From positions 1-64,000 of the forward strand of contig JAGAQG010000053.1 in assembly GCA_017622875.1 (NCBI GenBank): a stretch of DNA of 64,000 bases, read 5' to 3'. The notes beneath the pieces were generated by a model. That model saw only the letters and a program-made list of their open reading frames with translations. It searched no databases and was not told the origin of the DNA. The position numbers and the translations under genes are program-made. This DNA comes from Lachnospiraceae bacterium (GTDB taxonomy: Bacteria > Bacillota > Clostridia > Lachnospirales > Lachnospiraceae). Positions 2,828 to 20,963 of the stretch are shown here, piece by piece. The first letter of the stretch is position 1, and each line of letters starts with the position of its first letter.

Positions 2828-2838
2828 AAGGAGAAAAC

Positions 2839-5378: not shown

Positions 5379-5403
5379 AAATAAGTAACAAAGGAGAATG
5401 ATT

Positions 5404-6252
5404 ATGGGAATGTTTGATAAACCAATTTTAGTTTTTCAGACTGACTTTACTTATGCAGAAGGTGCAGTCAGTTCTATGTATGGAGTTGTAAAGACAGTTG
5501 ACAGAGAACTTGAAATTTTTGATGGAACACATCAGATTCCACAGTATGATACATGGAGTGCAAGTTACAGACTTTATCAGAGCTTACAGTTTTGGCCAAA
5601 GGGGACCATTTACGTATCCGTTGTTGACCCGGGCGTAGGGACTGCAAGAAAAGCCTGTGTAGCAAAAACTGTGGATGGATATTATATTGTAACACCGGAT
5701 AATGGTGCATTGACACATGTGAAAAAATACATTGGTATCGAAGCTGTTCGCGAAATTGATGAAACAGTGAACCGCCTTCAGAGTACCAGAGGAACAGCAA
5801 TCTTCCATGGAAGAGATCTGTTTGGTTATACAGCAGCCAGACTTGCAAGCGGCATCATCGATTTTGAAGGTGTTGGACCGGAATATTCCGTAGATGAAAT
5901 CGTAGAACATGAAATTCTGGAACCGACAGTGGAACCAAAACATGTCAAAGGTATTTTTGAAATCAATGACCCGAACTTCGGAAATCTCTGGACAAATATT
6001 CCGCTGGAAAAATTTGAAGAAGCAGGATTTCAGTATGGCGATATGGTCAATGTAAAGATCACTTATGAAGGTGAAACAGCATTTGAAGATACTGTACTTT
6101 TCCACAAATCCTTCGGATTTGCCAAGAAGGGTGATCCGATGGTATACAACAATGAGCTGATGAAGGTTGCCATGGCAGTCAGCCAGGGAAGCTTCTGCAA
6201 AAAATACAACCTTTCCTATGGACCGGAATGGGAAGTAGAATTTACTATTTAA
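5404..6252 (+). CDS. S-adenosyl-L-methionine hydrolase (DUF62), second copy
   Basis: 282 residues, clearly paralogous to the copy upstream of the ATPase (shared QTDF, VVDPGVG, TPDNG, EIDETVNRL, HGRD and NLWTNIP segments). The triad residues are kept: Asp75 and Arg82 in VVDPGVGTAR and the His of FHGRD. The QTDFG motif of the first copy reads QTDFT here. An in-frame ATG at 5398 lies only one base after AAGGAG, so the ATG at 5404 (7-base spacing) is preferred. The two copies differ throughout, so this is not a recent duplication; they may act as a mixed oligomer or on different substrates. Both are inside the same ECF operon. Confidence 0.87.
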   Translation: MGMFDKPILVFQTDFTYAEGAVSSMYGVVKTVDRELEIFDGTHQIPQYDTWSASYRLYQSLQFWPKGTIYVSVVDPGVGTARKACVAKTVDGYYIVTPDNGALTHVKKYIGIEAVREIDETVNRLQSTRGTAIFHGRDLFGYTAARLASGIIDFEGVGPEYSVDEIVEHEILEPTVEPKHVKGIFEINDPNFGNLWTNIPLEKFEEAGFQYGDMVNVKITYEGETAFEDTVLFHKSFGFAKKGDPMVYNNELMKVAMAVSQGSFCKKYNLSYGPEWEVEFTI

Positions 6253-6349
6253 TAAGGTAAAGATACTCGCATTTATTGACAGAAAGAGTTGATAAGAGTA
6301 TATTTATAACGAAAATCGCCGAAATATGGCGGAAAAGGAGAGACTTAAG

Positions 6350-6910
6350 ATGAACAAGAAATTATTTGATTTCAAAACAAAAACAATCGTAGCTACAGGT
6401 CTTGGTGCAGCTTTATTCATGTTATTATTCATGTACGTAAAGGTGCCAACAGGGATCCCTGAAACACAGATCCAGACAGCTTATGGTGTAGGCGGATTCT
6501 TCGCTGCATTATTCGGACCAATCGCTGGTGGTCTTATCGCATTCATTGGACATTTCCTTTCTGACTCTGTTCAGTATGGATCTGCATGGATGAGCTGGGT
6601 TATCGCTTCTGGCGTAACATGCTTTATCATCGGTATGGTATATCCAAAGCTTGCTGTTGAAGAAGGTAGATTCGATAAAAAAGACATGATCCTTTACAAT
6701 GTATACCAGATCGTTGGTAATATCATTGGATGGGTGATCGTAGCTCCTGTTCTTGATATCGTGATCTATGCTGAACCAGTAAACCTTGTATTTACACAGG
6801 GTGTTGTAGCTGCTATCTGTAACGCAGTATCTGCTGGTGTGATTGGTACAATCTTGCTAAAACTTTACAGCAAAGCACATGCTTCCAAAGGTAGTCTTAC
6901 AAAAGAATAA
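6350..6910 (+). CDS. ECF transporter S component, UPF0397 family
   Basis: 186 residues with five or six membrane segments. It resembles UPF0397 proteins: GLGAALFMLLFM near the start, AALFGPIAGGLIAFIGHFLSDS, WMSWVIASG and a final SKGSLTKE. Databases often label this family a riboflavin-type substrate-binding component, but the substrate is not established, and association with SAM hydrolases argues for something related to SAM, adenosine or methionine instead. The start at 6350 is chosen because AAGGAG ends 9 bases upstream; an in-frame ATG at 6326 has no such site. It is the last gene of the operon and is followed by a strong terminator. Confidence 0.85.
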   Translation: MNKKLFDFKTKTIVATGLGAALFMLLFMYVKVPTGIPETQIQTAYGVGGFFAALFGPIAGGLIAFIGHFLSDSVQYGSAWMSWVIASGVTCFIIGMVYPKLAVEEGRFDKKDMILYNVYQIVGNIIGWVIVAPVLDIVIYAEPVNLVFTQGVVAAICNAVSAGVIGTILLKLYSKAHASKGSLTKE

Positions 6911-6925: not shown

Positions 6926-6957
6926 AAGGACTGTCATTTTTGGCAGTCCTTAATTTT
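6926..6957 (+). terminator. Intrinsic terminator of the ECF/SAM hydrolase operon
   Basis: 11-bp stem (6926-6936 with 6941-6951, one G-T pair), TTTT loop, followed by TAATTTTT. Confidence 0.85.
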
Positions 6958-7031: not shown

Positions 7032-7060
7032 TTGCGAAATATCCCCTCATGGGGTATAAT
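7032..7060 (+). promoter_or_regulatory. Promoter of the CODH/ACS cluster
   Basis: TTGCGA, exactly 17 bases, TATAAT. The spacer contains CCCC-TCAT-GGGG (7043-7054) ending directly at the -10, a good position for a repressor or activator site. About 100 bases of leader follow before the His/Cys-rich gene. The rest of the 256-base gap holds the upstream terminator and no other gene. Confidence 0.7.
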
Positions 7061-7165
7061 GTAGAAAATGTGAAAATATTAACAAGATAATGGCAGCACT
7101 GGGATAACTATGCTGTATTTTGTGTTTGTTAGAAACATTTTCACAATATATAAGGAGGTAGAAAG

Positions 7166-7513
7166 ATGCACGGAACACATGACGAACATTGTACTTGCGG
7201 ATGTGGCGGACATGATCACGAACATCATCATCACGATCATGACTGTGGATGTGGACATGACCACGGACACGAACACCATCATCATGAAGGCTGTGACTGC
7301 GGATGCGGCGAACATGAGCAGCAGGATGAAAATGTAGCTGTGCTGGCATATATGCTGGATCACAATAAACATCATGCGTTAGAACTGAAAGAAATCGCAA
7401 AACACTTAAGAGAAGTGGGCAAGGATGAGGCTGCTGCACAGATTGAAAAAGGTGTGGAAGATTTCGAAAAGGGGAACATGAGATTAAGCATTGCTCTGTC
7501 TCTTGTAAAATAA
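7166..7513 (+). CDS. His/Cys-rich putative nickel-binding protein at head of CODH cluster
   Basis: 115 residues. The first 50 contain 18 histidines and 8 cysteines, arranged as three Cys-rich modules (CTCGC, CGCG, CDCGC) alternating with His clusters (HDHEHHHHDHD, HDHGHEHHHH). Residues about 57-115 are a His-poor, charged helical domain (contains HALELKEIAKHLREVGKDEA). A strong AAGGAGG precedes the ATG by 7 bases. Directly downstream are cooT and cooC, both linked to nickel insertion into CODH. By position and composition it looks like a functional counterpart of CooJ or of His-rich HypB/SlyD tails, that is, a nickel store or carrier; CooJ itself has its His-rich part at the C-terminus and I see no clear sequence relation. 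Function is inferred, not known. Confidence 0.8.
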   Translation: MHGTHDEHCTCGCGGHDHEHHHHDHDCGCGHDHGHEHHHHEGCDCGCGEHEQQDENVAVLAYMLDHNKHHALELKEIAKHLREVGKDEAAAQIEKGVEDFEKGNMRLSIALSLVK

Positions 7514-7541
7514 ATCATTTTAATATACGGAGGTGATATCC

Positions 7542-7736
7542 ATGTGCTTAGCAACCGTATATGGAAAAAAGGATGATACAGAAAGTATTATTCTGAAAAA
7601 TGCCACACTCATTGAAGTGGAAGGCAAAAAAATCGTCATTCGTGACATTATCGGCATGGAAACTGTCGTTGAAGGAGAAATCCAGATGGTAGACCTTGCC
7701 AATGCAGTGGTAAAGATTAAAGTCACTGCAGATTAA
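7542..7736 (+). CDS. cooT: CooT family nickel-binding protein
   Basis: 64 residues starting MCLATVYG, the hallmark of CooT, whose Cys2 forms the Ni(II) site at the dimer interface in the Rhodospirillum rubrum protein. The rest (LIEVEGKKIVIRDIIG, VEGEIQMVDL) matches the small beta-barrel fold of the family. An in-frame GTG at 7533 would overlap the ribosome binding site; GGAGG at 7529-7533 places the start at the ATG at 7542, which also puts the required Cys at position 2. It sits between the His/Cys-rich gene and cooC, and together they look like a nickel-delivery unit for CODH/ACS. Confidence 0.9.
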   Translation: MCLATVYGKKDDTESIILKNATLIEVEGKKIVIRDIIGMETVVEGEIQMVDLANAVVKIKVTAD

Positions 7737-7825
7737 GGTGAAGCCTGAAAAATAATTTCATTATAAATACAGGTGACACTTATGAAATTCTCAGAACTCA
7801 CGTAGGAAATAAAGGAGGGTGCCAA

Positions 7826-8596
7826 ATGGCGCATGTTATAGCAATCGCAGGTAAAGGCGGCGTAGGAAAGACAACATTATGCGGTATGTTGATTCAGTAC
7901 CTTGCTGATCGTAAGAAAGGACCGGTACTGGCTGTCGATGCAGATGCCAATTCCAACTTGAATGAAGTTTTAGGGGTGGAAGTGGACATGACTTTAGGTG
8001 ATATCCGTGAGGAAATCGCCAGAGCTGAAATCAGTACTACATCACCAATACCAAGCGGTATGACAAAGGCAGATTATGCAGAGTTTAAATTTGCTTCAGC
8101 AATTGTTGAAGAAGATGACTACGACCTTCTCGTGATGGGACGTACACAGGGGAAAGGTTGTTACTGCTATGTAAACGGTCTTCTCCAGGCACAGTTAGCA
8201 AAATTTCAGAAATCCTATCCATATATCGTCGTAGATAACGAGGCTGGTATGGAACATATCAGCAGGGGAGTCCTTCCGAGTATGGAAACAGCGATTTTGG
8301 TGAGCGACTGTTCAAGAAGAGGTATACAGGCAGTAGGCAGAATCGCAAAACTGATCGAAGAATGCGAACTGCATCCAAAGACAGTTGGCCTGATCGTAAA
8401 TCGCGCGCCAAAAGGCGAGTTGAACGACGGTATCAAAGAAGAAATCGAGCTTCAGGGCTTGAACTTGCTTGGTGTTGTTCCACAGGATGATGAAGTTTAT
8501 GAATGTGACTGCGCTGGAAAACCTACCAGCCAGCTTCCGGCGGATTCACCAGTGAAAAAGGCCTTATATCAGATTTTAGATAATCTGAATCTTTAA
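7826..8596 (+). CDS. cooC: CooC-type nickel-insertion ATPase, first copy
   Basis: 256 residues, MinD/Mrp-type P-loop ATPase with the deviant Walker A GKGGVGKTT at residues 9-17. The metal-binding pair Cys112-x-Cys114 in KGCYCYVNG is at the same residue numbers as in the characterised Carboxydothermus CooC1. CooC dimers bind nickel through these cysteines and support ATP-dependent activation of the CODH C-cluster. AAAGGAGGG precedes the ATG. It lies directly upstream of cooS, separated by a leader with two palindromes. A second, divergent CooC follows cooS; this first one is more likely the CODH maturase by its position and Cys motif, but that is inference. Confidence 0.92.
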   Translation: MAHVIAIAGKGGVGKTTLCGMLIQYLADRKKGPVLAVDADANSNLNEVLGVEVDMTLGDIREEIARAEISTTSPIPSGMTKADYAEFKFASAIVEEDDYDLLVMGRTQGKGCYCYVNGLLQAQLAKFQKSYPYIVVDNEAGMEHISRGVLPSMETAILVSDCSRRGIQAVGRIAKLIEECELHPKTVGLIVNRAPKGELNDGIKEEIELQGLNLLGVVPQDDEVYECDCAGKPTSQLPADSPVKKALYQILDNLNL

Positions 8597-8701: not shown

Positions 8702-10594
8702 ATGGGCGAATTTAGAATGACTACAGTTGAAGAATTTGAAGCGGCTACAGCCAGATTGCTTGAAACAGCTGAAAAAGTTGGTGCTGATACATGGCAGCTT
8801 CGTGTTAAACAGCAGACTCCACACTGTAAATTTGGTGAAACAGGTGTTTGCTGTCGTCTCTGTTCTATGGGACCATGTCGTGTTACTCCAAAAGCTCCTC
8901 GCGGAATCTGTGGATGTGATGCGGCTGGTATCGTAGCAAGAAACTACCTTACATTTACAGCAGGTGGTGCAGCTACTCACTCTGACCATGGACGTGAAAT
9001 CTGTCACACATTACATGAAACATCAGCAGATGGTGATTACAAAGTAAAAGACCCTGCAAAACTGATTCGTATCGCAAAAGAATGGGGTGTTGAAACAGAA
9101 GGCAAAGACATTTATGACTTGGCTCATGAAATGGCAGAACTTGCTCTTCTTGAATATGGTAAACCATTCGGAACACAGAGATTCTTAAAGAGAGCTCCAG
9201 AACATACACAGGAAATCTGGGCTCGTGAAGGTATCGAACCACGTGCAATCGACCGTGAAGTTTCACAGTCTATGCATATGACACATATGGGATGTTCTTC
9301 AGACCATAAAGCACTCATCCGTCACGCACTTCGTGCAGGTCTTTCCGATGGTTGGGGCGGTTCCATGATGGGTACAGAGTTCTCAGACGTTATGTTCGGA
9401 ACTCCTCATGAAATCGATACAGAAGCAAACCTTGGTGTTATGGAAGTTGAAAACGTAAACATCGTTGTTCACGGACATGACCCATCACTTTCCGAAATGA
9501 TCTGTGAAGTTGCAGATTCTAAGGAAATGATTGAAAAAGCAAAAGCAGTTGGTGCAAAGGGAATCACAATTTCTGGTGTATGCTGTACTTCAAACGAAGT
9601 AACAATGCGTCGTGGTATCCCAATGGCAGGTAACTTCTTACAGCAGGAAAACGTAGTTCTTACAGGTGCTTGTGAAGCTATCATTGTTGACGTACAGTGT
9701 ATCTTCCCAGCTTTAGGACCTTTAAGCAAATGTTTCCATACAAAATTTATCACAACATCTCCAATCGCTCAGATCCCAGGTTCTGAATTCATTCCATTCA
9801 GCCCTGAAACAGCAGGCAGAGATGCTAAGAAGATCGTAGAAATGGCTATCGAAAACTTCAAGAATCGTAAGCCAGAATTAGTACATATTCCAGATCAGAA
9901 ACAGAAAGCAACTGTTGGTTTCTCATTTGAAGAAATCATTCACAAACTTGATGGCGTAACAAACTCTTTCGTTGACAAGACAGGTACAACATTACCATTA
10001 GTTGACTGTGTGAAATCTGGTGTTCTCCGTGGTGCAGTAGCTATGGTTGGATGTAACAACCCTAAAGTACGTCCAGACGTTGCTCACATCGGACTTATGA
10101 AGAAATTCCTTGAAAACGATATTATCGTTATCACAACAGGATGTTCAGCACAGGCTGCAGCAAAAGCTGGTCTTATGGACAAACGTGCAAAAGATCTTTG
10201 CGGCGCTGGTCTGAAACGTGTTTGTGAATTAGCAGATATCCCACCAGTACTTCACATGGGATCTTGTGTAGATATTTCCCGTATGATGATTCTTGCATCT
10301 GAAATCGCTAAAGATTCAGGCTGGAAGATTTCTGAAATCCCAGTTCTTGGATGTGCTCCGGAATGGATGTCAGAAAAAGCTGTTTCTATCGGTAACTACG
10401 TAGTAGCTACAGGTATTGATACATACCTTGGTGTTGAACCATACGCTACAGGTTCCAAAGAAGTAGATGAATTATTAAAAGGCGGCCTTCGTGATTGGGT
10501 TGAAGCTTGCTTTACTGTTGAAACAGACATTGATAAACTGGGCGATATGATGGTCGAAGCAATCGAAAAGAAACGAGAAGCACTTGGTATCTAA
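8702..10594 (+). CDS. cooS: Carbon monoxide dehydrogenase catalytic subunit (beta subunit of CODH/ACS)
   Basis: 630 residues, usual length. It reduces CO2 to CO (or oxidises CO) at the Ni-Fe-S C-cluster and passes CO to ACS through an internal tunnel. D- and B-cluster cysteines are at 42, 50 (D) and 51, 54, 59, 70 (B) in the segment CKFGETGVCCRLCSMGPC and GICGC. C-cluster ligands are visible in order: His in VVHGHDP, then Cys in VCCTSNE, GACEA/VQCIF, GCNNPK, TTGCSAQ and MGSCVD. AAGGAGG precedes the start. Downstream are the second cooC and two acsB genes, so this is the bifunctional acetogenic CODH (AcsA) rather than a stand-alone CooS. Codon use is strongly biased, indicating high expression. 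Confidence 0.96.
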   Translation: MGEFRMTTVEEFEAATARLLETAEKVGADTWQLRVKQQTPHCKFGETGVCCRLCSMGPCRVTPKAPRGICGCDAAGIVARNYLTFTAGGAATHSDHGREICHTLHETSADGDYKVKDPAKLIRIAKEWGVETEGKDIYDLAHEMAELALLEYGKPFGTQRFLKRAPEHTQEIWAREGIEPRAIDREVSQSMHMTHMGCSSDHKALIRHALRAGLSDGWGGSMMGTEFSDVMFGTPHEIDTEANLGVMEVENVNIVVHGHDPSLSEMICEVADSKEMIEKAKAVGAKGITISGVCCTSNEVTMRRGIPMAGNFLQQENVVLTGACEAIIVDVQCIFPALGPLSKCFHTKFITTSPIAQIPGSEFIPFSPETAGRDAKKIVEMAIENFKNRKPELVHIPDQKQKATVGFSFEEIIHKLDGVTNSFVDKTGTTLPLVDCVKSGVLRGAVAMVGCNNPKVRPDVAHIGLMKKFLENDIIVITTGCSAQAAAKAGLMDKRAKDLCGAGLKRVCELADIPPVLHMGSCVDISRMMILASEIAKDSGWKISEIPVLGCAPEWMSEKAVSIGNYVVATGIDTYLGVEPYATGSKEVDELLKGGLRDWVEACFTVETDIDKLGDMMVEAIEKKREALGI

Positions 10595-11395: not shown

Positions 11396-11409
11396 ACGGA
11401 GGTATGACA

Positions 11410-13539
11410 GTGTTATTATTTGATATAGTTTTCAATGGTAATGATAAAATGTATGACAGAGCAGTCGCTGATCTGGAAGCAGCTATCGCGAAATACGGCG
11501 AAGACAAAGCAGTAGGATTCCCAGAAACAGCTTACAGTCTGCCATGTTATTATTCAGAAACAGGTGAAAAGATCGCAACTCTTGGCGAAATGAAAAACGC
11601 TATGGGTTACATCAAGAGCCTTATGACAAGAGAAAGAAGACTTGACTCAGGATTCAAGTCAGGCGTTGCTACAGCTCTTTGTGCAGAGTTCATCGAAGTT
11701 CTCAAATACATCGACGGAGCACAGCCATATGAACTTCCATTAGAAGGACATTTCTCAGATGCTAAGATCCGTGAACTTGGTGTTCCATTGGTAACAGGTG
11801 ACATTCCAGGTGTTGCTGTAATCATCGGTAAAGCTCCAAGCACACAGGAAGCAGTAGATTTAGTTAAGAGCTACCAGTCTCAGGGTATCTTCGTTGCCCT
11901 CGTTGGTGAATGCTGTGATCAGCTTGCAGAAGCTGGATATAAGACAGGTTTCGCAGTACGTGTAGTACCACTCGGAAAAGAAATCAACTCTGTAATCCAT
12001 ATTGTATCTGTAGCTTTAAGAGCAGCTCTCATCTTCGGTAACGTAACACCAGGTGACAAAGCAGCCCTTCAGAAATACACATTTGAAAGAATTAACGCAT
12101 TTGTTAACGCATTTGGTCCATTAGATGAAATGACAGTTGCTTGTGGTGCTGGCGCTATCTGGTATGGTTTCCCAGTAGTTACAAACGATATGGAATACAC
12201 ACCATCTGTACCAAAGAGCTTAATCAAATTCGAAGATGTTTCACAGTGGAATCCAATTTCCCTTGAAGCTCGTGGAATTAAACTTAAAATTACAAATATT
12301 GATATCCCAGTTGCATTCGCATCTGCATTCGAAGGTGAAATTATCCGTCGTGGCGATATGCAGGTTGAATTCGATGGTTCTCGTGTAGACTGCTTCGAAT
12401 TAGTTCAGACAAAAGAACTTACAGAAGTAGAAGATCACAAGATTGAAGTAATCGGACCAGACATCGACGAATGGGGCGTTGGCGAAAAACACAGCATCGG
12501 TTATGTTGTTGAAGTTGCTGGTAAGAACATGCAGCCTGATTTTGAATCAGTTATTGAACGTAAGTTCCACAGCTACATCAACTGTATCGAAGGTGTAATG
12601 CATACAGGTCAGCGTGATATGATCCGTGTTCGTATCAGCAAAGATGCTTATGAAGCTGGATTTAGATTAAAACACATTGGTGAAGTTCTTTACGCTAAGA
12701 TTAAGAACGATTACGAAGCAATCGTTGATAAACTTCAGGTTAAGATTTACACAAACCCAGAAGAATGTACGAAACTTCGCCATGAACTTGCAATCGAAAC
12801 ATTCGACAAACGTGATGCTCGTCTTGAAAGCTTAACAGACGAATCTGTAGACGTATACTACAGCTGTATTCTTTGCCAGGCATTCTCTCCATCACACGTA
12901 TGTGTTGTTACACCAGAACGTCTTGGTCTCTGTGGTGCAGTTTCATGGTTAGATGCTAAGGCTACAAACGAACTGGATCCAAATGGTCCATGTCAGATCA
13001 TCACAAAAGAACGTATCATCGACGAAAGAACAGGTGCTTATGAAGACGTTAATGAAGCAGTTAAGAAGTTCTCTCAGGGTGCTGTAGAGCAGGTAACACT
13101 TTACTCTATCATGGAAGATCCAATGACTTCCTGTGGATGTTTCGAATGTATCTGTGGTATTGAACCATTCTCAAATGGTGTAATCATTGCAAACCGTGAA
13201 TACGCTGGCATGACACCACTTGGTATGACATTCCCAGAACTTGCTTCTATGACAGGTGGTGGTGTTCAGACTCCAGGTTTCATGGGTCATGGTAAACACT
13301 TCATCGCTTCTAAGAAGTTCATGAAGGCAGAAGGCGGTATCGAACGTATCGTTTGGATGCCAAAAGAATTAAAAGAAACTGTTGCTGAAAGATTAAACAA
13401 GACAGCTTTTGAACTTTACGGCATTGAAAACTTCACAGATATGATCGGTGACGAAACAATCGCTGAAGATCCAGAAACATTACTTGGATTCTTAACAGAA
13501 AAAGGACATCCAGCACTTGGAATGGATCCTATGATGTAA
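11410..13539 (+). CDS. acsB: Acetyl-CoA synthase (ACS, alpha subunit of CODH/ACS), first tandem copy
   Basis: 709 residues. ACS joins CO, a methyl group from the corrinoid protein, and CoA to make acetyl-CoA at the Ni-Ni-[4Fe-4S] A-cluster. All A-cluster ligands are present: Cys486, Cys489, Cys498, Cys508 (SCILCQAF, SHVC, GLCG) for the iron-sulfur part and Cys575-Gly-Cys577 (TSCGCFEC) for the nickels, each 20 less than the Moorella numbers. GGAGG lies one base before the ATG at 11404 but 7 bases before the GTG at 11410; the GTG start also aligns with the second copy. Residues 1 to about 310 form the CODH-contacting, CO-channel domain. The paralogue 3' to it is nearly identical from about residue 290 on but diverges before that. 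Confidence 0.95.
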   Translation: MLLFDIVFNGNDKMYDRAVADLEAAIAKYGEDKAVGFPETAYSLPCYYSETGEKIATLGEMKNAMGYIKSLMTRERRLDSGFKSGVATALCAEFIEVLKYIDGAQPYELPLEGHFSDAKIRELGVPLVTGDIPGVAVIIGKAPSTQEAVDLVKSYQSQGIFVALVGECCDQLAEAGYKTGFAVRVVPLGKEINSVIHIVSVALRAALIFGNVTPGDKAALQKYTFERINAFVNAFGPLDEMTVACGAGAIWYGFPVVTNDMEYTPSVPKSLIKFEDVSQWNPISLEARGIKLKITNIDIPVAFASAFEGEIIRRGDMQVEFDGSRVDCFELVQTKELTEVEDHKIEVIGPDIDEWGVGEKHSIGYVVEVAGKNMQPDFESVIERKFHSYINCIEGVMHTGQRDMIRVRISKDAYEAGFRLKHIGEVLYAKIKNDYEAIVDKLQVKIYTNPEECTKLRHELAIETFDKRDARLESLTDESVDVYYSCILCQAFSPSHVCVVTPERLGLCGAVSWLDAKATNELDPNGPCQIITKERIIDERTGAYEDVNEAVKKFSQGAVEQVTLYSIMEDPMTSCGCFECICGIEPFSNGVIIANREYAGMTPLGMTFPELASMTGGGVQTPGFMGHGKHFIASKKFMKAEGGIERIVWMPKELKETVAERLNKTAFELYGIENFTDMIGDETIAEDPETLLGFLTEKGHPALGMDPMM

Positions 13540-13560: not shown

Positions 13561-13594
13561 AAGCGAGAGAAAATCGAGGGATTTTCTCTTGCTT
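13561..13594 (+). other. Strong hairpin between the two acsB genes
   Basis: 14-bp stem (13561-13574 with 13581-13594, one G-T pair) and a 6-base loop. No T-run follows, so it is unlikely to be a full terminator; an RNA-stabilising or processing element that sets the ratio of the two ACS proteins is possible. Confidence 0.6.
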
Positions 13595-13627
13595 ATAACC
13601 ATGTCATTAGAACGAGGATTAAAAGCT

Positions 13628-15754
13628 ATGTTAATTAACAGAATTTTTAATGGTAATGACGCAGTATATGGTCTGACAGTAGGTGCCATCGATGCAGCAA
13701 TCGCTGAACATGGTGCAGACAAAGCTGTCGGATTTCCAGATACAGCATACTGTCTTCCATGTTACTATGCAGTAACAGGTGTGAAGGTAAAAACACTTGG
13801 CGACTTAAAAGAAGCGGTAGGAGTTGTAAAAACTCTGATGACAAGAAATCATGAACTTGATGATGCTTTAATGTCAGGTGTTGCAACTGCACTTTGTGCA
13901 GAATTTATTGAAGCATTAAAATATATCGATGGTGCAGCTCCATATGCAGAACCATGCTATGGACATCTCTCAGATGCGATTATCCGTACTCTTGGTGTAC
14001 CATTGGTAACAGGAGATATCCCTGGTGTAGCTGTTATCTTAGGAAGCGCTCCAACCGCACAGGAAGGTGTTGACTTAATTAAGAGCTATCAGGCACAGGG
14101 TATCTTAGTAGCATTAGTTGGTGGAATCATTGATCAGTGTGAAGAATTAGGATACAAAACAGGCGCAGGCTTACGTGTTGTTCCATTAGGAAAAGACGTA
14201 ACAAGTGTTATTCATATTGTATCTGTTGCAATTCGTGCAGCGCTTATCTTTGGTAATGTAACACCAGGCGATGCAGGTGCGCTCCTTGCTTACACAGCAC
14301 AGCGTGTACCAGCATTTGTAAATGCATTTAAACCAATTGATGACGTTATCTTAGCAGCAGGTGCAGGTGCTATTAAACTTGGTTTCCCTGTAATTTCTAA
14401 CGAAACAGAAAACATTGCAGAAGTACCAGGTGCATTGATCCAGCAGCTCGACACAGCGGCTATGAACGCTACATCTTTAGAAGCAAGAGGAATTAAGATT
14501 AAAGTTACAAACATTGACATTCCTGTTGCATTTGCCTCTGCATTCGAAGGCGAAATCATTCGTCGCGGTGATATGCAGGTTGAATTCGACGGTTCTCGTG
14601 TAGACTGTTTCGAATTAGTTCAGTCTAAAGAGCTTTCAGAGATTGAAGATCATAAGATTGAAGTAATCGGACCGGAAATCGATGAATTTGAAGTTGGAAG
14701 CAAACACAGTATTGGTTATGTTGTTGAAGTTGCAGGAAAGAACATGCAGGCTGATTTCGAGTCAGTTATTGAACGTAAATTCCACAGCTACATCAACTGT
14801 ATCGAAGGTGTAATGCATACAGGTCAGCGTGATATGATCCGTGTTCGTATCAGCAAAGATGCTTATGCAGCAGGCTTCCGTGCAAAACACATCGGTGAAG
14901 TTCTTTATGCTAAAATTAAGAACGAATATGATGCGATCGTTGATAAATGTCAGGTGAAAATTTATACAAATCCGGAAGATTGTACAAAACTTCGTCATGA
15001 ACTGGCAGTTGAAACATTCAACAAACGTGATGAACGTTTGAACAGCTTAACAGACGAAGCAGTAGACGTATATTACAGCTGTATTCTTTGTCAGGCATTC
15101 TCCCCATCACACGTATGTGTAGTTACACCAGAAAGACTTGGTCTCTGCGGTGCGGTTTCATGGTTAGACGCAAAAGCTACGAATGAACTGGATCCAAATG
15201 GTCCATGTCAGGTAATTACAAAAGAACGTGTTATTGATGAAAGAACAGGTGCTTACGAAGATGTTAATGAAGCAGTTAAAAAATTCTCTCAGGGTGCTGT
15301 AGAGCAGGTAACACTGTACTCTATTATGGAAGATCCAATGACATCCTGTGGATGCTTCGAATGTATCTGTGGTATCGAACCATTCTCTAATGGTGTCATT
15401 ATTGCAAACCGTGAATATGCCGGTGTTACACCACTTGGTATGACATTCCCGGAACTTGCTTCCATGACAGGCGGCGGTGTTCAGACTCCAGGTTTCATGG
15501 GTCATGGTAAACACTTCATCGCTTCCAAGAAATTCATGAAAGCAGAAGGCGGTATTGAACGTATCGTATGGATGCCAAAAGAATTAAAAGAAACTGTTGC
15601 AGACAGATTAAACAAGACAGCTTTCGAATTATATGGAATCGAAAACTTCACAGATATGATCGGTGATGAAACAATTGCTGAAGATCCGGAAACATTACTT
15701 GCGTTCTTAACAGAAAAGGGACATCCAGCACTTGGTATGGATCCTATGATGTAA
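13628..15754 (+). CDS. acsB: Acetyl-CoA synthase, second tandem copy
   Basis: 708 residues. A-cluster ligands are complete: Cys485, 488, 497, 507 and Cys574-Gly-Cys576. The start at 13628 gives MLINRIFNGND, which lines up with the first copy; an upstream in-frame extension to 13589 would run through the intergenic hairpin, and CGAGGA sits 10 bases before 13628. Against the first copy the part after about residue 290 differs at few positions, whereas the N-terminal domain has many substitutions, including VALVGGIIDQCEEL against VALVGECCDQLAEA. Both copies therefore look functional. The N-terminal domain meets CODH, so the copies could differ in partner, CO channel or regulation. Confidence 0.94.
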   Translation: MLINRIFNGNDAVYGLTVGAIDAAIAEHGADKAVGFPDTAYCLPCYYAVTGVKVKTLGDLKEAVGVVKTLMTRNHELDDALMSGVATALCAEFIEALKYIDGAAPYAEPCYGHLSDAIIRTLGVPLVTGDIPGVAVILGSAPTAQEGVDLIKSYQAQGILVALVGGIIDQCEELGYKTGAGLRVVPLGKDVTSVIHIVSVAIRAALIFGNVTPGDAGALLAYTAQRVPAFVNAFKPIDDVILAAGAGAIKLGFPVISNETENIAEVPGALIQQLDTAAMNATSLEARGIKIKVTNIDIPVAFASAFEGEIIRRGDMQVEFDGSRVDCFELVQSKELSEIEDHKIEVIGPEIDEFEVGSKHSIGYVVEVAGKNMQADFESVIERKFHSYINCIEGVMHTGQRDMIRVRISKDAYAAGFRAKHIGEVLYAKIKNEYDAIVDKCQVKIYTNPEDCTKLRHELAVETFNKRDERLNSLTDEAVDVYYSCILCQAFSPSHVCVVTPERLGLCGAVSWLDAKATNELDPNGPCQVITKERVIDERTGAYEDVNEAVKKFSQGAVEQVTLYSIMEDPMTSCGCFECICGIEPFSNGVIIANREYAGVTPLGMTFPELASMTGGGVQTPGFMGHGKHFIASKKFMKAEGGIERIVWMPKELKETVADRLNKTAFELYGIENFTDMIGDETIAEDPETLLAFLTEKGHPALGMDPMM

Positions 15755-15787: not shown

Positions 15788-16729
15788 ATGCCATTTAATG
15801 GAAAATCAGGAAAATTTAATGCTGCAATTCGTACAGTTGAAATCGGTACTGGCGACAAAGCAGTAAAACTTGGCGGCGAATGCGTAGCTCCATTATACTC
15901 ATTCGATGCTCCAATTGAAAATGCACCAAAGGTTGGTGTACTTATTACAGACCACGGTTTTGAAAACGAATCCGAAGGTATCAAAGCTTACTACGAAGGA
16001 TGCTCTAACTGGGGAGAAATCGCTCAGAGAGCAGCAGCAATGGAAGGTGCAGACTTCCTTGTATTAAAATTCGACAAAGCTGATCCAAATGGTGAAAATG
16101 CACCTGTAGAAGACTGCCTTGCAATCATCAATGAAGTTGCAGCAGCTACAGATATGCCATTAGTAATCGCTGGATGTAAAAATGCTGAAAAAGATGCTGA
16201 AATCTTCAACAAAGCAGCAGAAGCACTTCAGGGCAAAAACGTTCTGATCTTCTCCGCTAAAGAAGAAAACTACAAAGGTGTTGCAGCATCTGCAGTATTA
16301 GCATATGGCCAGAAGGTTGGTGCTGAATCTTCAGTAGATATCAACCTTGCAAAACAGTTAAACGTTGTTATCTCTCAGGTAGGCGTTGACATGGGCAACA
16401 TCGTTATGAACGTTGGTACAGCTACAGCAGGTTACGGTTTTGAATATGTAGTTTCTACATTAGACCGTGTAAAAGCAGCTGCTTTAGGACAGGACGATGC
16501 TCAGTTACAGATGCCAATCATGACAAATGTTGGTGATGAAACATGGGCTGTTAAGGAATCTACAGCTTCTGAAGCTGATATTCCAGCATGGGGTCCTGTA
16601 GACGCTCGTGGTGTGAACATGGAAGTTGCAACAGCTATGGCTGTATTAGCATCCGGTTCCAATGCAGTAATTTTGAAACATCCTACTTCTGTAGCAACTG
16701 TTTCTAAATTAATCAAGGAATTAATGTAG
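15788..16729 (+). CDS. acsD: Corrinoid/iron-sulfur protein small subunit
   Basis: 313 residues, expected length. With AcsC it forms the CFeSP heterodimer that carries the methyl group on cobalt from methyl-THF to ACS. The fold is a TIM barrel; recognisable segments include VEIGTGDKAVKLGG at the start, VGVLITDHG, VVISQVGVDMGNIVMNVGTATAGYGFEY and AWGPVDARG. No iron-sulfur Cys motif is expected in this subunit and none is seen. AGAGGAGG precedes the ATG. It is 33 bases after the second acsB and 22 bases before acsC, in one operon. Confidence 0.95.
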   Translation: MPFNGKSGKFNAAIRTVEIGTGDKAVKLGGECVAPLYSFDAPIENAPKVGVLITDHGFENESEGIKAYYEGCSNWGEIAQRAAAMEGADFLVLKFDKADPNGENAPVEDCLAIINEVAAATDMPLVIAGCKNAEKDAEIFNKAAEALQGKNVLIFSAKEENYKGVAASAVLAYGQKVGAESSVDINLAKQLNVVISQVGVDMGNIVMNVGTATAGYGFEYVVSTLDRVKAAALGQDDAQLQMPIMTNVGDETWAVKESTASEADIPAWGPVDARGVNMEVATAMAVLASGSNAVILKHPTSVATVSKLIKELM

Positions 16730-16751
16730 GAAGAGAAGGAGGAAAATCAAG

Positions 16752-18089
16752 ATGGCATTAAAAGGTTTAGACATTTTTAAATTAACACCAAAAACAAACT
16801 GTAAAGAATGTGGAAGCCCAACATGTATGGCTTTCTCCATGAAAGTTGCTCAGGGTGCAGTAGACATCTCTAAATGTCCACATATGTCAAGCGATGCTAT
16901 GGCAGCATTATCAGAAGCTACAGCACCACCAATGAAAACTATCAAAGTTGGTACAGGCGATGCTGAATACTCATTAGGCGGAGAAACAGTTCTCTACAGA
17001 CATGAAAAAACATTCGTTAGCAAAACACGTTATGCAGTTCGCGTAAACGCAGCTGATGTTGATGCTAAAATGGCAGTAATCGACAACGTAGACTACGATC
17101 GTATCAGTGAAAGAATGCACGTAGAAATGGTATACGTTGATTACACAGGTGAAGCAGACTACGCTGAAACAGTTAAAAAAGTTGCTGGTAAAGGCAAAAC
17201 TATCATCCTCGGATGTACAGATGTTGCAGCAGCAAAAGCAGCTTTAGATGTTTGCGCAGCTGAAAAACCAATCTTAAACGGTGCTACAGCAGCTAACTAC
17301 GCTGAAATGGTAGAAGTTGCAAAAGCAGCTGGCGTTGTTCTCGGTGTTTGCGCAGCTAACATTGATGAATTATACGACACAACAAAAGCAATCGAAGGAC
17401 TTGGATACAAAGAATTAGTTCTTGACTGTACAGAAGGTACAATCAAAGATACATTCGCTACAGCTGTAAAAGTTCGTCGTGCTGCATTAGCTAAAAACCC
17501 AGACAGAACATGCGGTTACCCATCTATCGTTAACGTTGCAGCTTTAACAGCTGATACAACAGAACAGTGCGGTTTAGCATCTCTGTTTACAATGAAATAC
17601 GGTTCAATCGTAGTAATGGATCAGATGACATATGCAGAAGCTCTTCCATTATTCGGACTTCGTCAGAACGTATTCACAGACCCACAGAAACCAATGAAAG
17701 TTGAAACAGGTATCTACCCAATCAACGGTGCAGATGAAAACAGCGTATGTGTAACAACAGTAGACTTCGCTCTTACATACTTCTTAGTATCAGGCGAACT
17801 TGAAAGATCAGGAGTACCTGTAAACCTTGTTATCTCTGATGCAGGCGGATTATCTGTATTAACATCTTGGGCAGCTGGTAAATTCTCTGGTAACACAATT
17901 TCTAAGTTCTTCCAGGAAAACGTAGAAGATAAGGTTAAGAGCAGAAAAGTTATCATCCCAGGTAAGGTTGCTGTATTAAAGGGTGACATCGAAGCAAAAC
18001 TTCCAGGTTGGGAAGTAATCATTGCTCCAAACGAAGCTGCACAGCTCGTTAAATTCCTGAAAGATATGCAGGAAAACGGAGAAATCTAA
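16752..18089 (+). CDS. acsC: Corrinoid/iron-sulfur protein large subunit
   Basis: 445 residues. The N-terminal [4Fe-4S] domain has Cys17, Cys20, Cys25 and Cys42 (NCKECGSPTC and SKCPHM), the same positions as in Moorella AcsC. This cluster reduces cobalt to Co(I). A TIM barrel follows, then the C-terminal corrinoid-binding domain (about 330-445; contains VISDAGGLSVLTSWAAGKF). The protein carries methyl-cobalamin to ACS. It is read with acsD and is followed by acsE after 51 AT-rich bases with their own strong ribosome binding site. Confidence 0.95.
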   Translation: MALKGLDIFKLTPKTNCKECGSPTCMAFSMKVAQGAVDISKCPHMSSDAMAALSEATAPPMKTIKVGTGDAEYSLGGETVLYRHEKTFVSKTRYAVRVNAADVDAKMAVIDNVDYDRISERMHVEMVYVDYTGEADYAETVKKVAGKGKTIILGCTDVAAAKAALDVCAAEKPILNGATAANYAEMVEVAKAAGVVLGVCAANIDELYDTTKAIEGLGYKELVLDCTEGTIKDTFATAVKVRRAALAKNPDRTCGYPSIVNVAALTADTTEQCGLASLFTMKYGSIVVMDQMTYAEALPLFGLRQNVFTDPQKPMKVETGIYPINGADENSVCVTTVDFALTYFLVSGELERSGVPVNLVISDAGGLSVLTSWAAGKFSGNTISKFFQENVEDKVKSRKVIIPGKVAVLKGDIEAKLPGWEVIIAPNEAAQLVKFLKDMQENGEI

Positions 18090-18140
18090 GAGTAGGTTTT
18101 TCTTAAAATAAAAAAATAACCCATAAAAGGAGAAAAAACG

Positions 18141-18926
18141 ATGGCAAAATTTGTTACTATCGGTGAAAGAATTCACTGCATTTCCCCAGTTATTCGTAAA
18201 GCTATGGAAGAAATGAATCCAGAACCAATCTTAAAGAGAGCGAAAGAACAGCTTGACGCTGGCGCTACATATCTGGACGTTAATATCGGACCTGCTGAAA
18301 ACAACGGTGAAGAATTAATGAAATGGGCTGTAACAACAATCCAGGATGCATTTGACAATGTTCCTTTAGCACTTGATACAGCAAACAAGAAGGCTATCGA
18401 AGCTGGTATTTCTGTATACAACAGAAGCAAAGGTAAACCAATCGTTAACTCTGCAGACGCAGGCGGACGTATCGAAAACATCGACCTTGCAGCTGCAAAC
18501 GATGCAATCGTTATCGCTCTTTGTTCAGCAGAAGGTATTGCAGCAGACAACGACGAACGTATGATGCACTGCCAGAACATGCTTGAAAGAGGTATGATGC
18601 AGGGTATGGATCCTTCAGATCTCTGGTTCGATCCATTATTCCTCGTTGTTAAAGGTATGCAGGACAAACAGATGGAAGTATTAGAAGCAATCAAGATGTT
18701 CAGCGATATGGAACTGAACTCTACAGGTGGTCTTTCTAACAACTCCAACGGTATGCCAAAACACATCAGACCAATTATGGACTCTGCATTAGTAGCTATG
18801 GCTATGATGAACGGTTTAACATCCGCTATCGTAAATCCATGTGATTTAAGATTAATGGAAACAATTAAATCTTGTGATATTTTCAAGAACAACACACTTT
18901 ACGCAGATTCCTACTTAGAAATCTAA
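18141..18926 (+). CDS. acsE: Methyltetrahydrofolate:corrinoid/iron-sulfur protein methyltransferase
   Basis: 261 residues, the usual size. It moves the methyl group of methyl-THF to Co(I) of the CFeSP, joining the folate and carbonyl branches. Pterin-binding-type TIM-barrel motifs are visible: YLDVNIGP, LALDTANK, IVNSADAGG, and GLSNNSNG, whose Asn after Ser corresponds to the Asn that activates the pterin in the Moorella enzyme. AAAAGGAG precedes the start. A strong hairpin with T-rich tail follows, so transcripts may partly stop here before acsV. Confidence 0.95.
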   Translation: MAKFVTIGERIHCISPVIRKAMEEMNPEPILKRAKEQLDAGATYLDVNIGPAENNGEELMKWAVTTIQDAFDNVPLALDTANKKAIEAGISVYNRSKGKPIVNSADAGGRIENIDLAAANDAIVIALCSAEGIAADNDERMMHCQNMLERGMMQGMDPSDLWFDPLFLVVKGMQDKQMEVLEAIKMFSDMELNSTGGLSNNSNGMPKHIRPIMDSALVAMAMMNGLTSAIVNPCDLRLMETIKSCDIFKNNTLYADSYLEI

Positions 18927-18943
18927 TTTCAAATGCCGTAATA

Positions 18944-18995
18944 GGTTGGTGAAGGGCTTTGGCCTTTCACCAGCCATGTTATGGCTTTCTTTTTC
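18944..18995 (+). terminator. Terminator or attenuator between acsE and acsV
   Basis: 14-bp stem (18944-18957 with 18962-18975, two G-T pairs), 4-base loop, then after a short gap TTTCTTTTTC. It would lower expression of acsV and the DUF3786 gene relative to the structural genes. Confidence 0.6.
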
Positions 18996-19028
18996 ATTAA
19001 CCATCATTCGATAAGTAGGGAGAACGTA

Positions 19029-20963
19029 ATGGCTAAGGTATTATTTAAATTTGAGGACGGATCGCAGGTAGAAGCAAGCGCAGCACTTGGCGAAAATCTT
19101 CTGGAGGTTGCCAGAAAAGTCAATGTAGCCATCGATGCTCCGTGTTCAGGAAACGCATCCTGCGGTAAATGTAAAGTAAAGTTTTTAAGCGGGGAATTGG
19201 ATTCAAAGAAAACCCGTCATATTAGTGAGGCAGAATATTCAGAAGGATGGAGACTCTCTTGTGTCAGTACGATTACGGGAGATGTAGAGGTGATGGTGCC
19301 GGACATTGCATCTGCTTATAAAAGCAGAATGAAAGTGGCGGATTTAAGCTCACCGGAAGAAATCCAGATTTTTAATAAAGCAACAGAAGAAATTAAAGCG
19401 GCAGGCGTAGAATTTAAAAACAGTTTTGAGGTCATCGAACTGCAGATGGATGAACCGACACTGGACGATACGATGCCGGATAATGAACGTCTTGTGTGGG
19501 CGCTAGAGGCACAGACTGGCAAAGAAAACATTAAATTATCTTTCACCGTACTTCGAAAAATGGCAAAAGTACTGCGTGCGGCTGCATTTCATGTAAAAGC
19601 AGTTGTAACAGTAAAAGATGAGGAAGTATTTGTATACGACCTTGTTCCTGCTGACAAAGAAGCATATGTTACAGGACTTGCGATTGATATCGGTACAACA
19701 ACGGTATCAGGAGTGATCTTAGATTTACTGACCGGAAAGATTCTTGCAAAAGCATCTTCAGGCAATGGACAGATTCGCTACGGTGCAGACGTTATCAATC
19801 GTATTATTGAACAGCAGAAACCGGGCGGAGTTGCAAAACTTCAGAAGGCAATCATTGATGAGACTATTAATCCAATGATCATAAATATGTGCCGGGCAGC
19901 CAAAGTTGCACCAAACTGTATTTACAGTATGTGTATTGGTGCAAATACGACTATGAACCATCTTTTTGTAGGTGTTGATGGTGATCCAATTCGTATGGAG
20001 CCATTTATTCCAACATTTTTTGGTACAGACAGCATCCACGGAAGAGATTTAGATATTAAGATTCATCCAGATGCAAGAATTATCATTGCTCCAAATATTG
20101 GAAGCTATGTAGGCGGCGATATTACAGCTGGTACATTAGTCAGCATGGTGTGGGCGCAGGAGTCATTCAGCCTTTTTGTAGATCTTGGTACAAATGGAGA
20201 ACTTGTATTTGGAAATTCAGACTTTATGATGAGCTGTGCATGTTCGGCAGGTCCAGCATTTGAAGGTGGAGATATTTCCTGTGGTATGAGAGCGACAGAT
20301 GGAGCCATTGAAGCATGTGTCATTGATCCTGTGACAATGGAACCGACATTTACAATCGTTGGTGACGAAGGAACAAAACCGGTGGGATTATGTGGCTCCG
20401 GCATCATTGATGTGATTGCTGAACTCTTTAGATGTAAGATTATCGGACCAAACGGAAAATTTATTCGTGAAGGTGCGAGAGTGCGTCATGATAAATATGG
20501 CATCGGAAGTTATCTGCTGGCAACAAAAGAAGAGGCTGGCAGCGTAAAAGACATTGAAATCAATGAAGTTGATATTGATAACTTTATCCGTGCAAAAGGC
20601 GCAATCTTCTCAGCAATCTACACAATGCTGGTGTCCTTAGATTTCGACGTATCCATGATTGAAAATGTATACGTTGCAGGTGGTATCGGAAGCGGTATCA
20701 ATATGGAAAATGCAGTCAATATTGGGATGTTCCCGGATATTGGTGTAGAAAAATATCATTACATTGGTAACTCCTCACTGGCAGGTGCTTACGCAATGGT
20801 ATTATCAGAGCCTGCAGAAGAAAAGGTGTACGAGCTTTCAAAGAACATGACTTACATGGAGCTTAGCACAACACCAGGTTATATGGATGAATTTGTGGCA
20901 GCATGCTTTATTCCGCATACAAATTCTTCTCTTTTTCCAAATGTAAAACAGGCGGATATATAA
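19029..20963 (+). CDS. acsV: Reductive activator of the corrinoid/iron-sulfur protein (RACo)
   Basis: 644 residues. The N-terminal [2Fe-2S] ferredoxin domain has Cys39, Cys45, Cys48 and Cys78 (PCSGNASCGKC and RLSC). A linker leads to an ASKHA-type ATPase domain with AIDIGTTTVSGVILD near residue 217 and further motifs DLGTNGELVFG and AGGIGSG. RACo uses ATP to return oxidised Co(II) of the CFeSP to Co(I). GGGAGA 7 bases before the ATG at 19029 decides the start; an in-frame ATG at 18981 lies in the terminator tail with no such site. It is the sub-stoichiometric repair protein of the pathway, which fits its place after an attenuator-like hairpin. Confidence 0.93.
   Translation: MAKVLFKFEDGSQVEASAALGENLLEVARKVNVAIDAPCSGNASCGKCKVKFLSGELDSKKTRHISEAEYSEGWRLSCVSTITGDVEVMVPDIASAYKSRMKVADLSSPEEIQIFNKATEEIKAAGVEFKNSFEVIELQMDEPTLDDTMPDNERLVWALEAQTGKENIKLSFTVLRKMAKVLRAAAFHVKAVVTVKDEEVFVYDLVPADKEAYVTGLAIDIGTTTVSGVILDLLTGKILAKASSGNGQIRYGADVINRIIEQQKPGGVAKLQKAIIDETINPMIINMCRAAKVAPNCIYSMCIGANTTMNHLFVGVDGDPIRMEPFIPTFFGTDSIHGRDLDIKIHPDARIIIAPNIGSYVGGDITAGTLVSMVWAQESFSLFVDLGTNGELVFGNSDFMMSCACSAGPAFEGGDISCGMRATDGAIEACVIDPVTMEPTFTIVGDEGTKPVGLCGSGIIDVIAELFRCKIIGPNGKFIREGARVRHDKYGIGSYLLATKEEAGSVKDIEINEVDIDNFIRAKGAIFSAIYTMLVSLDFDVSMIENVYVAGGIGSGINMENAVNIGMFPDIGVEKYHYIGNSSLAGAYAMVLSEPAEEKVYELSKNMTYMELSTTPGYMDEFVAACFIPHTNSSLFPNVKQADI

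What the first reader, a model, noticed from the sequence alone, without database searches (positions are those of the whole stretch)
7166..8596. A candidate nickel-delivery module: His/Cys-rich protein, CooT and CooC at the head of the CODH/ACS operon
The sequence shows an unnamed protein with 18 His and 8 Cys in its first 50 residues, arranged as alternating Cys modules and His clusters, and a separate helical C-terminal domain, directly followed by cooT and cooC. Known systems (R. rubrum CooC-CooT-CooJ) use a His-tailed CooJ. Here the metal-rich part is N-terminal and Cys-containing, so it looks like an independent solution to the same task. Both CODH and ACS need nickel, so demand would be high. 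Role as nickel store or donor is inference.
Basis: partly seen in the sequence, partly recalled or inferred. Interest (0 to 1): 0.82.

Follow-up and report, generated by a model that had tools for sequence, protein, structure and literature searches.

The report
CooJ-like nickel donor for acetyl-CoA synthase
In a Lachnospiraceae bacterium the operon for the nickel enzymes that make acetyl-CoA from carbon monoxide begins with a small protein whose histidine- and cysteine-rich front end would hold nickel and whose predicted helical hairpin is likely related to the known nickel protein CooJ; because its gene nearly always co-occurs with acetyl-CoA synthase, that enzyme is its likely customer.

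Summary
Observation confirmed: 18 His and 8 Cys in the first 50 residues of a 115-aa ORF (7166-7513), followed by cooT, cooC, cooS, a second cooC-type gene and two acsB.

The nickel reading fits; 'independent solution' does not. The C-terminal domain is a predicted helical hairpin. Profiles built through relatives reach R. rubrum CooJ (6hk5), with CooJ's H-F-x2-H-x3-H on the family's H-W-x2-H-x3-H (window: Y-M-x2-H-N-x-H-H). It is likely a CooJ relative whose metal tail moved to the N-terminus.

It tracks acetyl-CoA synthase rather than CODH or CooT: 23 of 23 AcsB+ against 3 of 177 AcsB- Lachnospiraceae genomes; 10 of 12 against 1 of 224 in the class; 0 of 8 genomes with CODH and CooT but no AcsB. 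In one genome it is fused to an intact AcsB.

Prior art: the syntenic His-rich gene hp of Clostridium autoethanogenum was deleted in 2023 (AcsB and CooS1 fell, AcsE and AcsD rose, among 93 changed proteins); a 2026 paper lists 'potential CooJ' in similar operons.

Verdict: a real, conserved new variant of a known kind; nickel binding and transfer untested.

The parts
6926..6951 (+). intrinsic terminator-like hairpin that closes the upstream transporter genes
   Evidence: 11-bp stem plus T-run; 1 found, 1.6 expected in shuffles, so weak alone; its position between two gene groups fits
7032..7060 (+). promoter-like site TTGCGA-17-TATAAT upstream of the operon
   Evidence: 10 of 12 matches; the number of sites in the region (5, expected 4.7) is at chance level, so only a candidate
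7152..7158 (+). ribosome-binding site AAGGAGG
   Evidence: read
7166..7513 (+). CooJ-related His/Cys-tailed protein, 115 aa
   Evidence: the 120 homologues listed (of 1690) carry precomputed PF26551
7166..7315 (+). N-terminal metal tail, residues 1-50: 18 His, 8 Cys, starts Met-His
   Evidence: tail length and His number vary widely among relatives; His2 (89 of 92 long tails) and at least 3 Cys (94 of 95) recur in Lachnospiraceae
7325..7510 (+). C-terminal helical hairpin, residues 54-115, CooJ-like
   Evidence: (AlphaFold2, pLDDT 98.2, helices 2-30 and 34-61 of the 62-residue model)
7349..7375 (+). motif Y62-M63-L-D-H66-N67-K-H69-H70, aligned with H-F-L-D-H-V-E-G-H of CooJ; H66 and H70 each kept in 48 of 49 aligned sequences, window included
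7542..7736 (+). cooT, with Cys2
   Evidence: PF10133 E 2.2e-14; Met-Cys invariant in 22 of 22 aligned CooT
7826..8596 (+). cooC, MinD/CooC-type ATPase
   Evidence: CbiA E 1.1e-19
8702..10594 (+). cooS/acsA, Ni-CODH catalytic subunit
   Evidence: TIGR01702, 618 bits
10625..11395 (+). second CooC-type ATPase between cooS and acsB (position of AcsF; the name AcsF is recalled)
11404..13539 (+). acsB copy 1, A-cluster cysteine motif intact
13589..15754 (+). acsB copy 2 (exact start uncertain), A-cluster cysteine motif intact
15788..20963 (+). genes named here acsD, acsC, acsE, acsV from their sequence and order; not scanned themselves (the counterpart of acsV in L110 matches NF040756)

Best explanation
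The protein at 7166-7513 is likely a CooJ-type nickel carrier with its metal tail moved to the N-terminus, and it would collect nickel and pass it, with CooT and the CooC-type ATPases, to the acetyl-CoA synthase of the operon that it heads. Likely working (inferred): the flexible tail (Met-His start, His runs, Cys pairs) gathers Ni(II); the hairpin, probably dimeric like CooJ, holds one tighter site around H66 and H70 and docks on the partner; CooT (Cys2) and the ATPases complete insertion into the A-cluster and perhaps the C-cluster. Shown here: the anatomy, the operon, a sequence relation to CooJ through intermediates, the co-occurrence with AcsB, and one fusion to AcsB. Not shown: metal binding, dimerisation, docking, transfer.
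For: (1) CooJ: a profile of 19 diverse hairpins ranks CooJ 6hk5_B third of 177635 distinct PDB sequences (E 0.055), behind a designed minibinder and SG135 (taken by me for a designed protein), collinear, motif on motif. The CooJ segment beats 20000 of 20000 shuffles with that profile, 19999 with each of A2 and A7, 19997 with A1, 19990 with A6, 19985 with A3. CooJ was named as the hypothesis before the first PDB search (note). (2) Tracks ACS: Lachnospiraceae 23 of 23 AcsB+ against 3 of 177 AcsB- (Fisher 3e-27); class 10 of 12 against 1 of 224 (6e-15); 0 of 8 genomes with CODH and CooT but no AcsB (against 10 of 12, p 4e-4). (3) Fusion: in G205 tail plus hairpin is fused to a full ACS of three Pfam domains with the A-cluster cysteine motif intact; in G184 and G296 of the same family the hairpin gene stands just upstream of a second acsB. 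(4) CooT within 500 bp of the domain in 44 of 47 loci. (5) In G280 it precedes a peptide/nickel-type binding protein whose best model is NikA (E 3e-42; oligopeptide Opp4A 4e-38; all below their cut-offs). (6) Published: deletion of the syntenic hp lowers AcsB and CooS1 1.5-fold and raises AcsE and AcsD (PMC10230548).
Against: No metal datum. The CooJ match is below database-wide significance. Of seven other queries, two ranked CooJ 12th and 10th and five did not show it (19, 39, 44, 50, 63), and a Lachnospiraceae-only profile does not single it out (937 of 20000 shuffles as good). The window has Tyr and Met where CooJ has His and Phe. Domain genomes without CODH and ACS exist: G223, G399, G468, G582. 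AcsB genomes without the domain exist: G155, and G028 (72% complete). Several members have no His tail (L095, L104, L105, L109, L111, L114). The fusion is seen once and a search for others found none. The C. autoethanogenum hp deletion grew normally on syngas in minimal medium, and 93 proteins changed in it, among them 13 ribosomal proteins, so its effect is not specific to nickel enzymes. Genomes are related, so Fisher values overstate independence.
Confidence: 0.58

Rival explanations
1. It is a CooJ-type nickel donor for the CODH C-cluster, as in R. rubrum; the tie to ACS is indirect because CODH and ACS share one operon.
For: It stands directly before cooT, cooC and cooS. R. rubrum cooJ mutants need added nickel for growth on CO, which depends on CODH (PMC6006190, passages). 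Deletion of hp in C. autoethanogenum lowers the separate CooS1 too.
Against: 0 of 8 genomes with CODH and CooT but no AcsB have it. In L226, L227 and L229 it follows acsB, in L228 and L230 it lies between two acsB, and in L108 it is fused to AcsB.
Confidence: 0.2
2. It is a guard: a zinc or copper sponge that keeps wrong metals out of the A-cluster, whose proximal site is known to take up Cu or Zn (recalled).
For: Cys-rich tails (3 or more Cys in 94 of 95 Lachnospiraceae tails) suit thiophilic metals; it would explain a link to ACS rather than CODH.
Against: Cys is absent or rare in many relatives outside Lachnospiraceae; frequent pairing with CooT, a nickel-binding family; relation to CooJ, which binds nickel (PMC6006190); a NikA-like neighbour in L115.
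Confidence: 0.1
3. It is a general nickel store or detoxifier, co-transcribed with the main nickel consumers but with no client of its own.
For: Tail length is very variable (95 Lachnospiraceae tails: 25-112 residues, 5-41 His), as in storage proteins such as Hpn (recalled); the tail can be missing while the hairpin stays.
Against: The conserved part is the hairpin with its His motif, not the tail; one fusion to ACS; tail-less forms could store little.
Confidence: 0.08

Closest known systems
CooJ of Rhodospirillum rubrum (PDB 6hk5)
   Same: Small protein of a helical domain plus a His-rich segment, encoded with cooT and cooC beside a Ni-CODH; aligned His motif; same likely task
   Different: His-rich segment N-terminal instead of C-terminal (16 His in the C-terminal domain of RrCooJ, PMC6006190), also Cys-rich; Tyr/Met at two motif positions; follows ACS, which I recall R. 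rubrum does not have
hp (LABRINI_07945 / CAETHG_1604) of Clostridium autoethanogenum, PMC10230548
   Same: Described as His-rich, next to CooT (nbp) at the C1-fixing cluster; the order of the genes whose numbers are given (hp, nbp, acsB, acsE, acsD) is that of L232 (hairpin, CooT, AcsV, AcsB, AcsE, AcsC, AcsD, CooC); the deletion shortens the test fragment by 341 bp, about the length of this gene
   Different: Sequence not seen here, so orthology rests on order, size and description; the paper reports the AcsB change but is not listed among papers that hold the word CooJ together with acetyl-CoA synthase
'potential CooJ' set of Bohm and Land 2026, PMC13056359
   Same: 68 potential CooJ found by PSI-BLAST seeded from operons with cooS and cooT; in CODH clade E, CooJ and CooT appear in two parts, all but one tied to one-carbon genes: very probably includes this kind
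HypA/HypB nickel proteins
   Same: HypA binds Ni(II) at residues His2 and Glu3 (PMC10134865, passage) and HypB has a His-rich N-terminal extension (PMC6344411, passage)
   Different: No GTPase or HypA zinc domain; NCBIfam HypB_prefix_1 at E 0.014, 16.7 bits against a cut-off of 30

Membership tests
CooJ | helical domain homologous to that of R. rubrum CooJ | tested here: met
   collinear match over the hairpin, 0 of 20000 shuffles as good with profile A9; only through intermediate sequences (the Lachnospiraceae-only profile fails), one of eight queries tried, and below database-wide significance (E 0.055)
CooJ | complete motif H-(W/F)-x2-H-x3-H (motif recalled; seen as H-F-x2-H-x3-H in the CooJ row) | tested here: not met
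   window has Y-M-x2-H-x3-H; relatives such as L110, L113 and L226-L230 do have H-W-x2-H-x3-H
CooJ | His-rich segment at the C-terminus | tested here: not met
   tail is N-terminal; 6 residues at most follow the matched hairpin in the 80 named loci
CooJ | gene beside cooT, cooC and a Ni-CODH | tested here: met
CooJ | binds nickel as a dimer | not testable with these tools
   needs purified protein
PF26551 (Pfam model not in the local copy; no name given) | match to the Pfam model | not testable with these tools
   the 120 listed homologues carry it as precomputed annotation; the local Pfam scan gave no such hit
HypB N-terminal prefix (NF053667) | score over the curated cut-off | tested here: not met
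   16.7 of 30 bits
CooT (neighbour, 7542-7736) | PF10133 over its cut-off and Cys at position 2 | tested here: met
   53.9 bits against 27; Met-Cys in 22 of 22; profile hits 6fan CooT E 4e-13 and 5n76 CooT E 5e-4

The most novel reading that the evidence does not exclude
Acetyl-CoA synthase has its own dedicated nickel donor: a CooJ hairpin with the metal tail flipped to the N-terminus, which docks on ACS (in one lineage it became part of ACS) and, with CooT, loads the A-cluster apart from CODH maturation. The same donor pair also serves an undescribed nickel-dependent system of Lachnospiraceae that lack CODH and ACS, built of 2-hydroxyacyl-CoA-dehydratase-like proteins, a BadF-type ATPase, a CooC-like ATPase and a 240-residue CdhC-like protein.
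Probability: 0.3. Interest if true: 0.75.

Novelty: new variant of a known kind. Interest (0 to 1): 0.55.

Why it matters
How nickel reaches the A-cluster of acetyl-CoA synthase, the core of acetogenesis, is largely open beyond the ATPase AcsF (recalled). A small protein that follows ACS, is fused to it once, and looks like a permuted CooJ gives a concrete candidate and would join the unnamed hp gene of C. autoethanogenum, a tractable laboratory strain, to a known nickel protein. The 4 of 120 listed homologues that bear a source name are called 'cobalt transporter', which appears wrong for a small soluble protein. The four genomes without CODH and ACS make the same pair a pointer to a possible unknown nickel enzyme.

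Tried and rejected
Rejected: an independent invention (the hairpin likely relates to CooJ). A HypB-type prefix (below cut-off). A riboswitch: Rfam found nothing in the window at gathering scores. A promoter call: sites at chance level. A copper or zinc protein: not tested by a search for such genes; set aside because CooT and AcsB are the usual company.

Dropped before counting: matches that cover only part of the hairpin or have E 2e-4 or worse: 3 of 29 genomes in the family search (G394, G451, G473), 9 of 23 in the phylum search, 5 of 16 in the class search, and second places in G489, G825 and G088. AcsB was counted only over the cut-off or, for G477 and G028, as two contig pieces; 11 family genomes with only a short CdhC-like match were counted as AcsB-negative, as were G223 and G007 in the class draw. 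That the 14 control genomes lie in the 236-genome draw is inferred from their handle numbers; all 14 lacked a hit in the less sensitive single-sequence search of 391 genomes, and their fetched CooT regions show neither AcsB nor the domain. The Met-His counts use starts picked by Shine-Dalgarno score; one search preferred Met-His starts and is circular on that one point.

Full report
What is there. The ORF at 7166-7513 codes for 115 residues behind a good ribosome-binding site; its first 50 residues hold 18 His and 8 Cys, the only such stretch in the window. A terminator-like hairpin at 6926-6951 separates it from the upstream transporter genes. It is followed by cooT (likely start 7542, Met-Cys), cooC, cooS, a second CooC-type ATPase and two acsB, and then by genes that I name acsD, acsC, acsE and acsV from sequence and order. 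No Rfam element was found in the window.

Who has it. The family search used 200 genomes of 200 genera. The hairpin was found strongly in 26 of 200 genomes and true AcsB in 23 of 200. All 23 AcsB genomes have the hairpin; 3 of the 177 others do (Fisher 3e-27). In a draw of 236 genomes of the class the hairpin was in 11, AcsB in 12, both in 10 (Fisher 6e-15). In the phylum draw 14 of 299 genomes had strong hits. Relatedness of genomes makes these p-values too small, but the direction is clear.

ACS, CODH or CooT? CooT alone does not bring the hairpin. A class search of 391 genomes found 48 CooT places. Ten lie in regions already fetched because of the hairpin. Of the other 38, fetched hold AcsB and 7 of these have the hairpin; 29 hold no AcsB in the region and none has it; 25 of the 29 have DUF3842 beside CooT. 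Some of the 29 are short contigs (L248, L257), and in G063, G163 and G226 a second CooT elsewhere does have the hairpin beside it (L111, L109, L114). CODH alone does not bring it either: of 14 genomes with CooT but neither AcsB nor hairpin, 8 have a CODH over the cut-off. ACS is therefore the better predictor. All 12 AcsB genomes of the class draw also have CooT, so the comparison is 10 of 12 against 0 of 8 (p 4e-4).

Neighbours. In 47 regions from 47 other genomes (25 from the family, 13 from the phylum and 9 from the class searches), CooT lies within 500 bp of the hairpin gene in 44, at times with DUF3842 between; the exceptions are L090, L112 and L115. AcsB is in the region in 32, elsewhere in the genome in 11 more, and absent in 4. 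In the 80 named loci, CooT is present in 80, CooC in 77 and CooS in 74, the 6 without CooS being cut off by contig ends. In L115 the gene precedes a peptide/nickel-type binding protein whose best model is NikA, below its cut-off.

Fusion. In L108 (G205) the tail and hairpin are fused in frame to a complete ACS: Pfam CODH_A_N, CdhC and ACS_CODH_B_C, with the A-cluster cysteine motif in place. In two genomes of the same family (L228, L230) the hairpin gene stands just upstream of a second acsB, a likely earlier stage. No further fusion was found, so it rests on one assembly.

Anatomy. The hairpin is predicted with pLDDT 98.2 as two helices. Two His, H66 and H70 of the window, are each present in 48 of 49 aligned sequences. 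In relatives such as L110, L113 and L226-L230 the motif reads H-W-x2-H-x3-H; in the window it reads Y-M-x2-H-N-x-H-H. The tail varies widely in length and His number, and is absent in L095, L104, L105, L109, L111 and L114, so the hairpin is the constant part. In Lachnospiraceae 89 of 92 long tails begin Met-His (background: second residue His in 8 of 499) and 94 of 95 have at least 3 Cys.

Relation to CooJ. CooJ was noted as the hypothesis, before any PDB search. Three profiles found 6hk5 CooJ: E 0.49 (rank 12), 0.91 (rank 10) and, with the set richest in H-W-type members, 0.055 (rank 3). Five other queries did not show it. The alignment covers 52 residues, nearly the whole hairpin, and puts CooJ H-F-L-D-H-V-E-G-H on the family motif. 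Of 20000 shuffles of the CooJ segment, 0 scored as well with A9, 1 with A2, 1 with A7, 3 with A1, 10 with A6, 15 with A3, and 937 with the Lachnospiraceae-only A8. The segment was chosen by the match itself, which favours it a little. The link is likely and runs through the intermediates. Since RrCooJ carries its 16 His in the C-terminal domain (PMC6006190, passages), the domain order is reversed. By the rule on defining features it is not filed as a CooJ, but as a CooJ relative that probably works like one.

Prior art. PMC10230548 (abstract, passages and three of six text parts read) describes hp, a His-rich protein beside the CooT gene nbp at the C1 cluster of C. autoethanogenum, with homologues at the clusters of other acetogens. 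Its place and length match the hairpin gene of L232; I did not see its sequence. Deleting hp slowed growth in rich medium (21% on fructose, 37% on syngas), not on syngas in minimal medium, lowered CO uptake by 8% in chemostats, lowered AcsB and CooS1 1.5-fold, and raised AcsE and AcsD 1.5-fold. In all, 93 proteins changed, with 13 ribosomal proteins down and several alcohol dehydrogenases up, so the effect is broad. A loss of two nickel enzymes with a gain of nickel-free partners fits a nickel-supply fault; that is my reading, not the authors'. In the parts read, added nickel was tested for nbp only. PMC13056359 (abstract, passages, Discussion) reports 'potential CooJ' in clade E operons tied to one-carbon genes. 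PMC6344411 (passages) reports CooC and CooT with the WLP-type CODH group. Searches for CooJ with acetyl-CoA synthase, for histidine-rich with acetogen terms and for PF26551 (no paper) in the held open-access library list no title, and gave no passage among those I read, that describes a reversed CooJ or its tie to ACS. Most subscription papers are not held, including the CooJ structure paper.

Exceptions worth a look. Four Lachnospiraceae genomes (G223, G399, G468, G582) have hairpin and CooT but neither CODH nor ACS. In all four the pair lies in a region with 2-hydroxyacyl-CoA-dehydratase-like (HGD-D) genes, a BadF-type ATPase gene and a gene for a CdhC-like protein of 237-265 residues ending in (D/E)-C-x2-C-x5-C-DEVEG; a CooC-like gene is present in three (the fourth, L092, is a cut contig). 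The names rest on Pfam scans of L089 and L093 proteins and on likeness to them. The same core without the hairpin is found in other genomes.

Mechanism and confidence. Best reading: the tail gathers nickel, the hairpin holds and delivers it, and CooT and ATPases help to load ACS (0.58). Rivals are a CODH-directed CooJ (0.2), a zinc or copper guard (0.1) and a general store (0.08). All metal steps are inferred.

Noticed in passing
window 11404-13539 and 13589-15754: Tandem acsB copies: the first about 300 residues are 54-76% identical per 50-residue bin, the rest 88-100% (DNA 0.59-0.75 against 0.87-0.95), a sharp boundary that suggests gene conversion or strong constraint on the C-terminal part; both keep the A-cluster cysteine motif. 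Tandem acsB also in L073, L075, L085 and L088.
   Followed up: partly
L089, L093, L280, L269, L271-L274, L276-L278; cut by contig ends in L092, L270, L275, L279: Conserved gene set CooC-like - HGD-D - HGD-D - BadF-type ATPase - CdhC-like protein of about 240 residues with a C-terminal C-x2-C-x5-C motif, in genomes without AcsB except G415 (L278). In L089 and L280, where hairpin and CooT are present, there is an extra HGD-D pair; in L093 the one visible pair stands on the hairpin side. Possibly an undescribed one-carbon or redox enzyme.
   Followed up: partly
L226-L263, L096-L106: DUF3842 is encoded next to CooT in 25 of 29 CooT regions without AcsB and in many with it: a two-gene unit of unknown role.
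   Followed up: no
L094:9168-9575: G113 carries three neighbouring His-rich or hairpin genes before CooT; one hairpin copy has lost the motif His (Q and I in place of H66 and H70) and has a Cys-containing, His-poor tail.
   Followed up: no
window 818-1429 (-): YmaF-family protein (PF12788, E 5e-30) with a long Arg/Asn/Glu-rich N-terminal region.
   Followed up: no
window 1970-6910: Two SAM hydroxide adenosyltransferase-like genes (5398-6252 by Pfam; 1970-2827 by eye, from its likeness) flank genes that look like ECF ATPase and T component (by eye), followed by an S component (PF07155, E 7e-47); substrate unknown.
   Followed up: no
homologues P0007, P0082, P0091, P0093: The only 4 of 120 listed homologues with a source name are called 'cobalt transporter', probably a propagated misannotation.
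   Followed up: no
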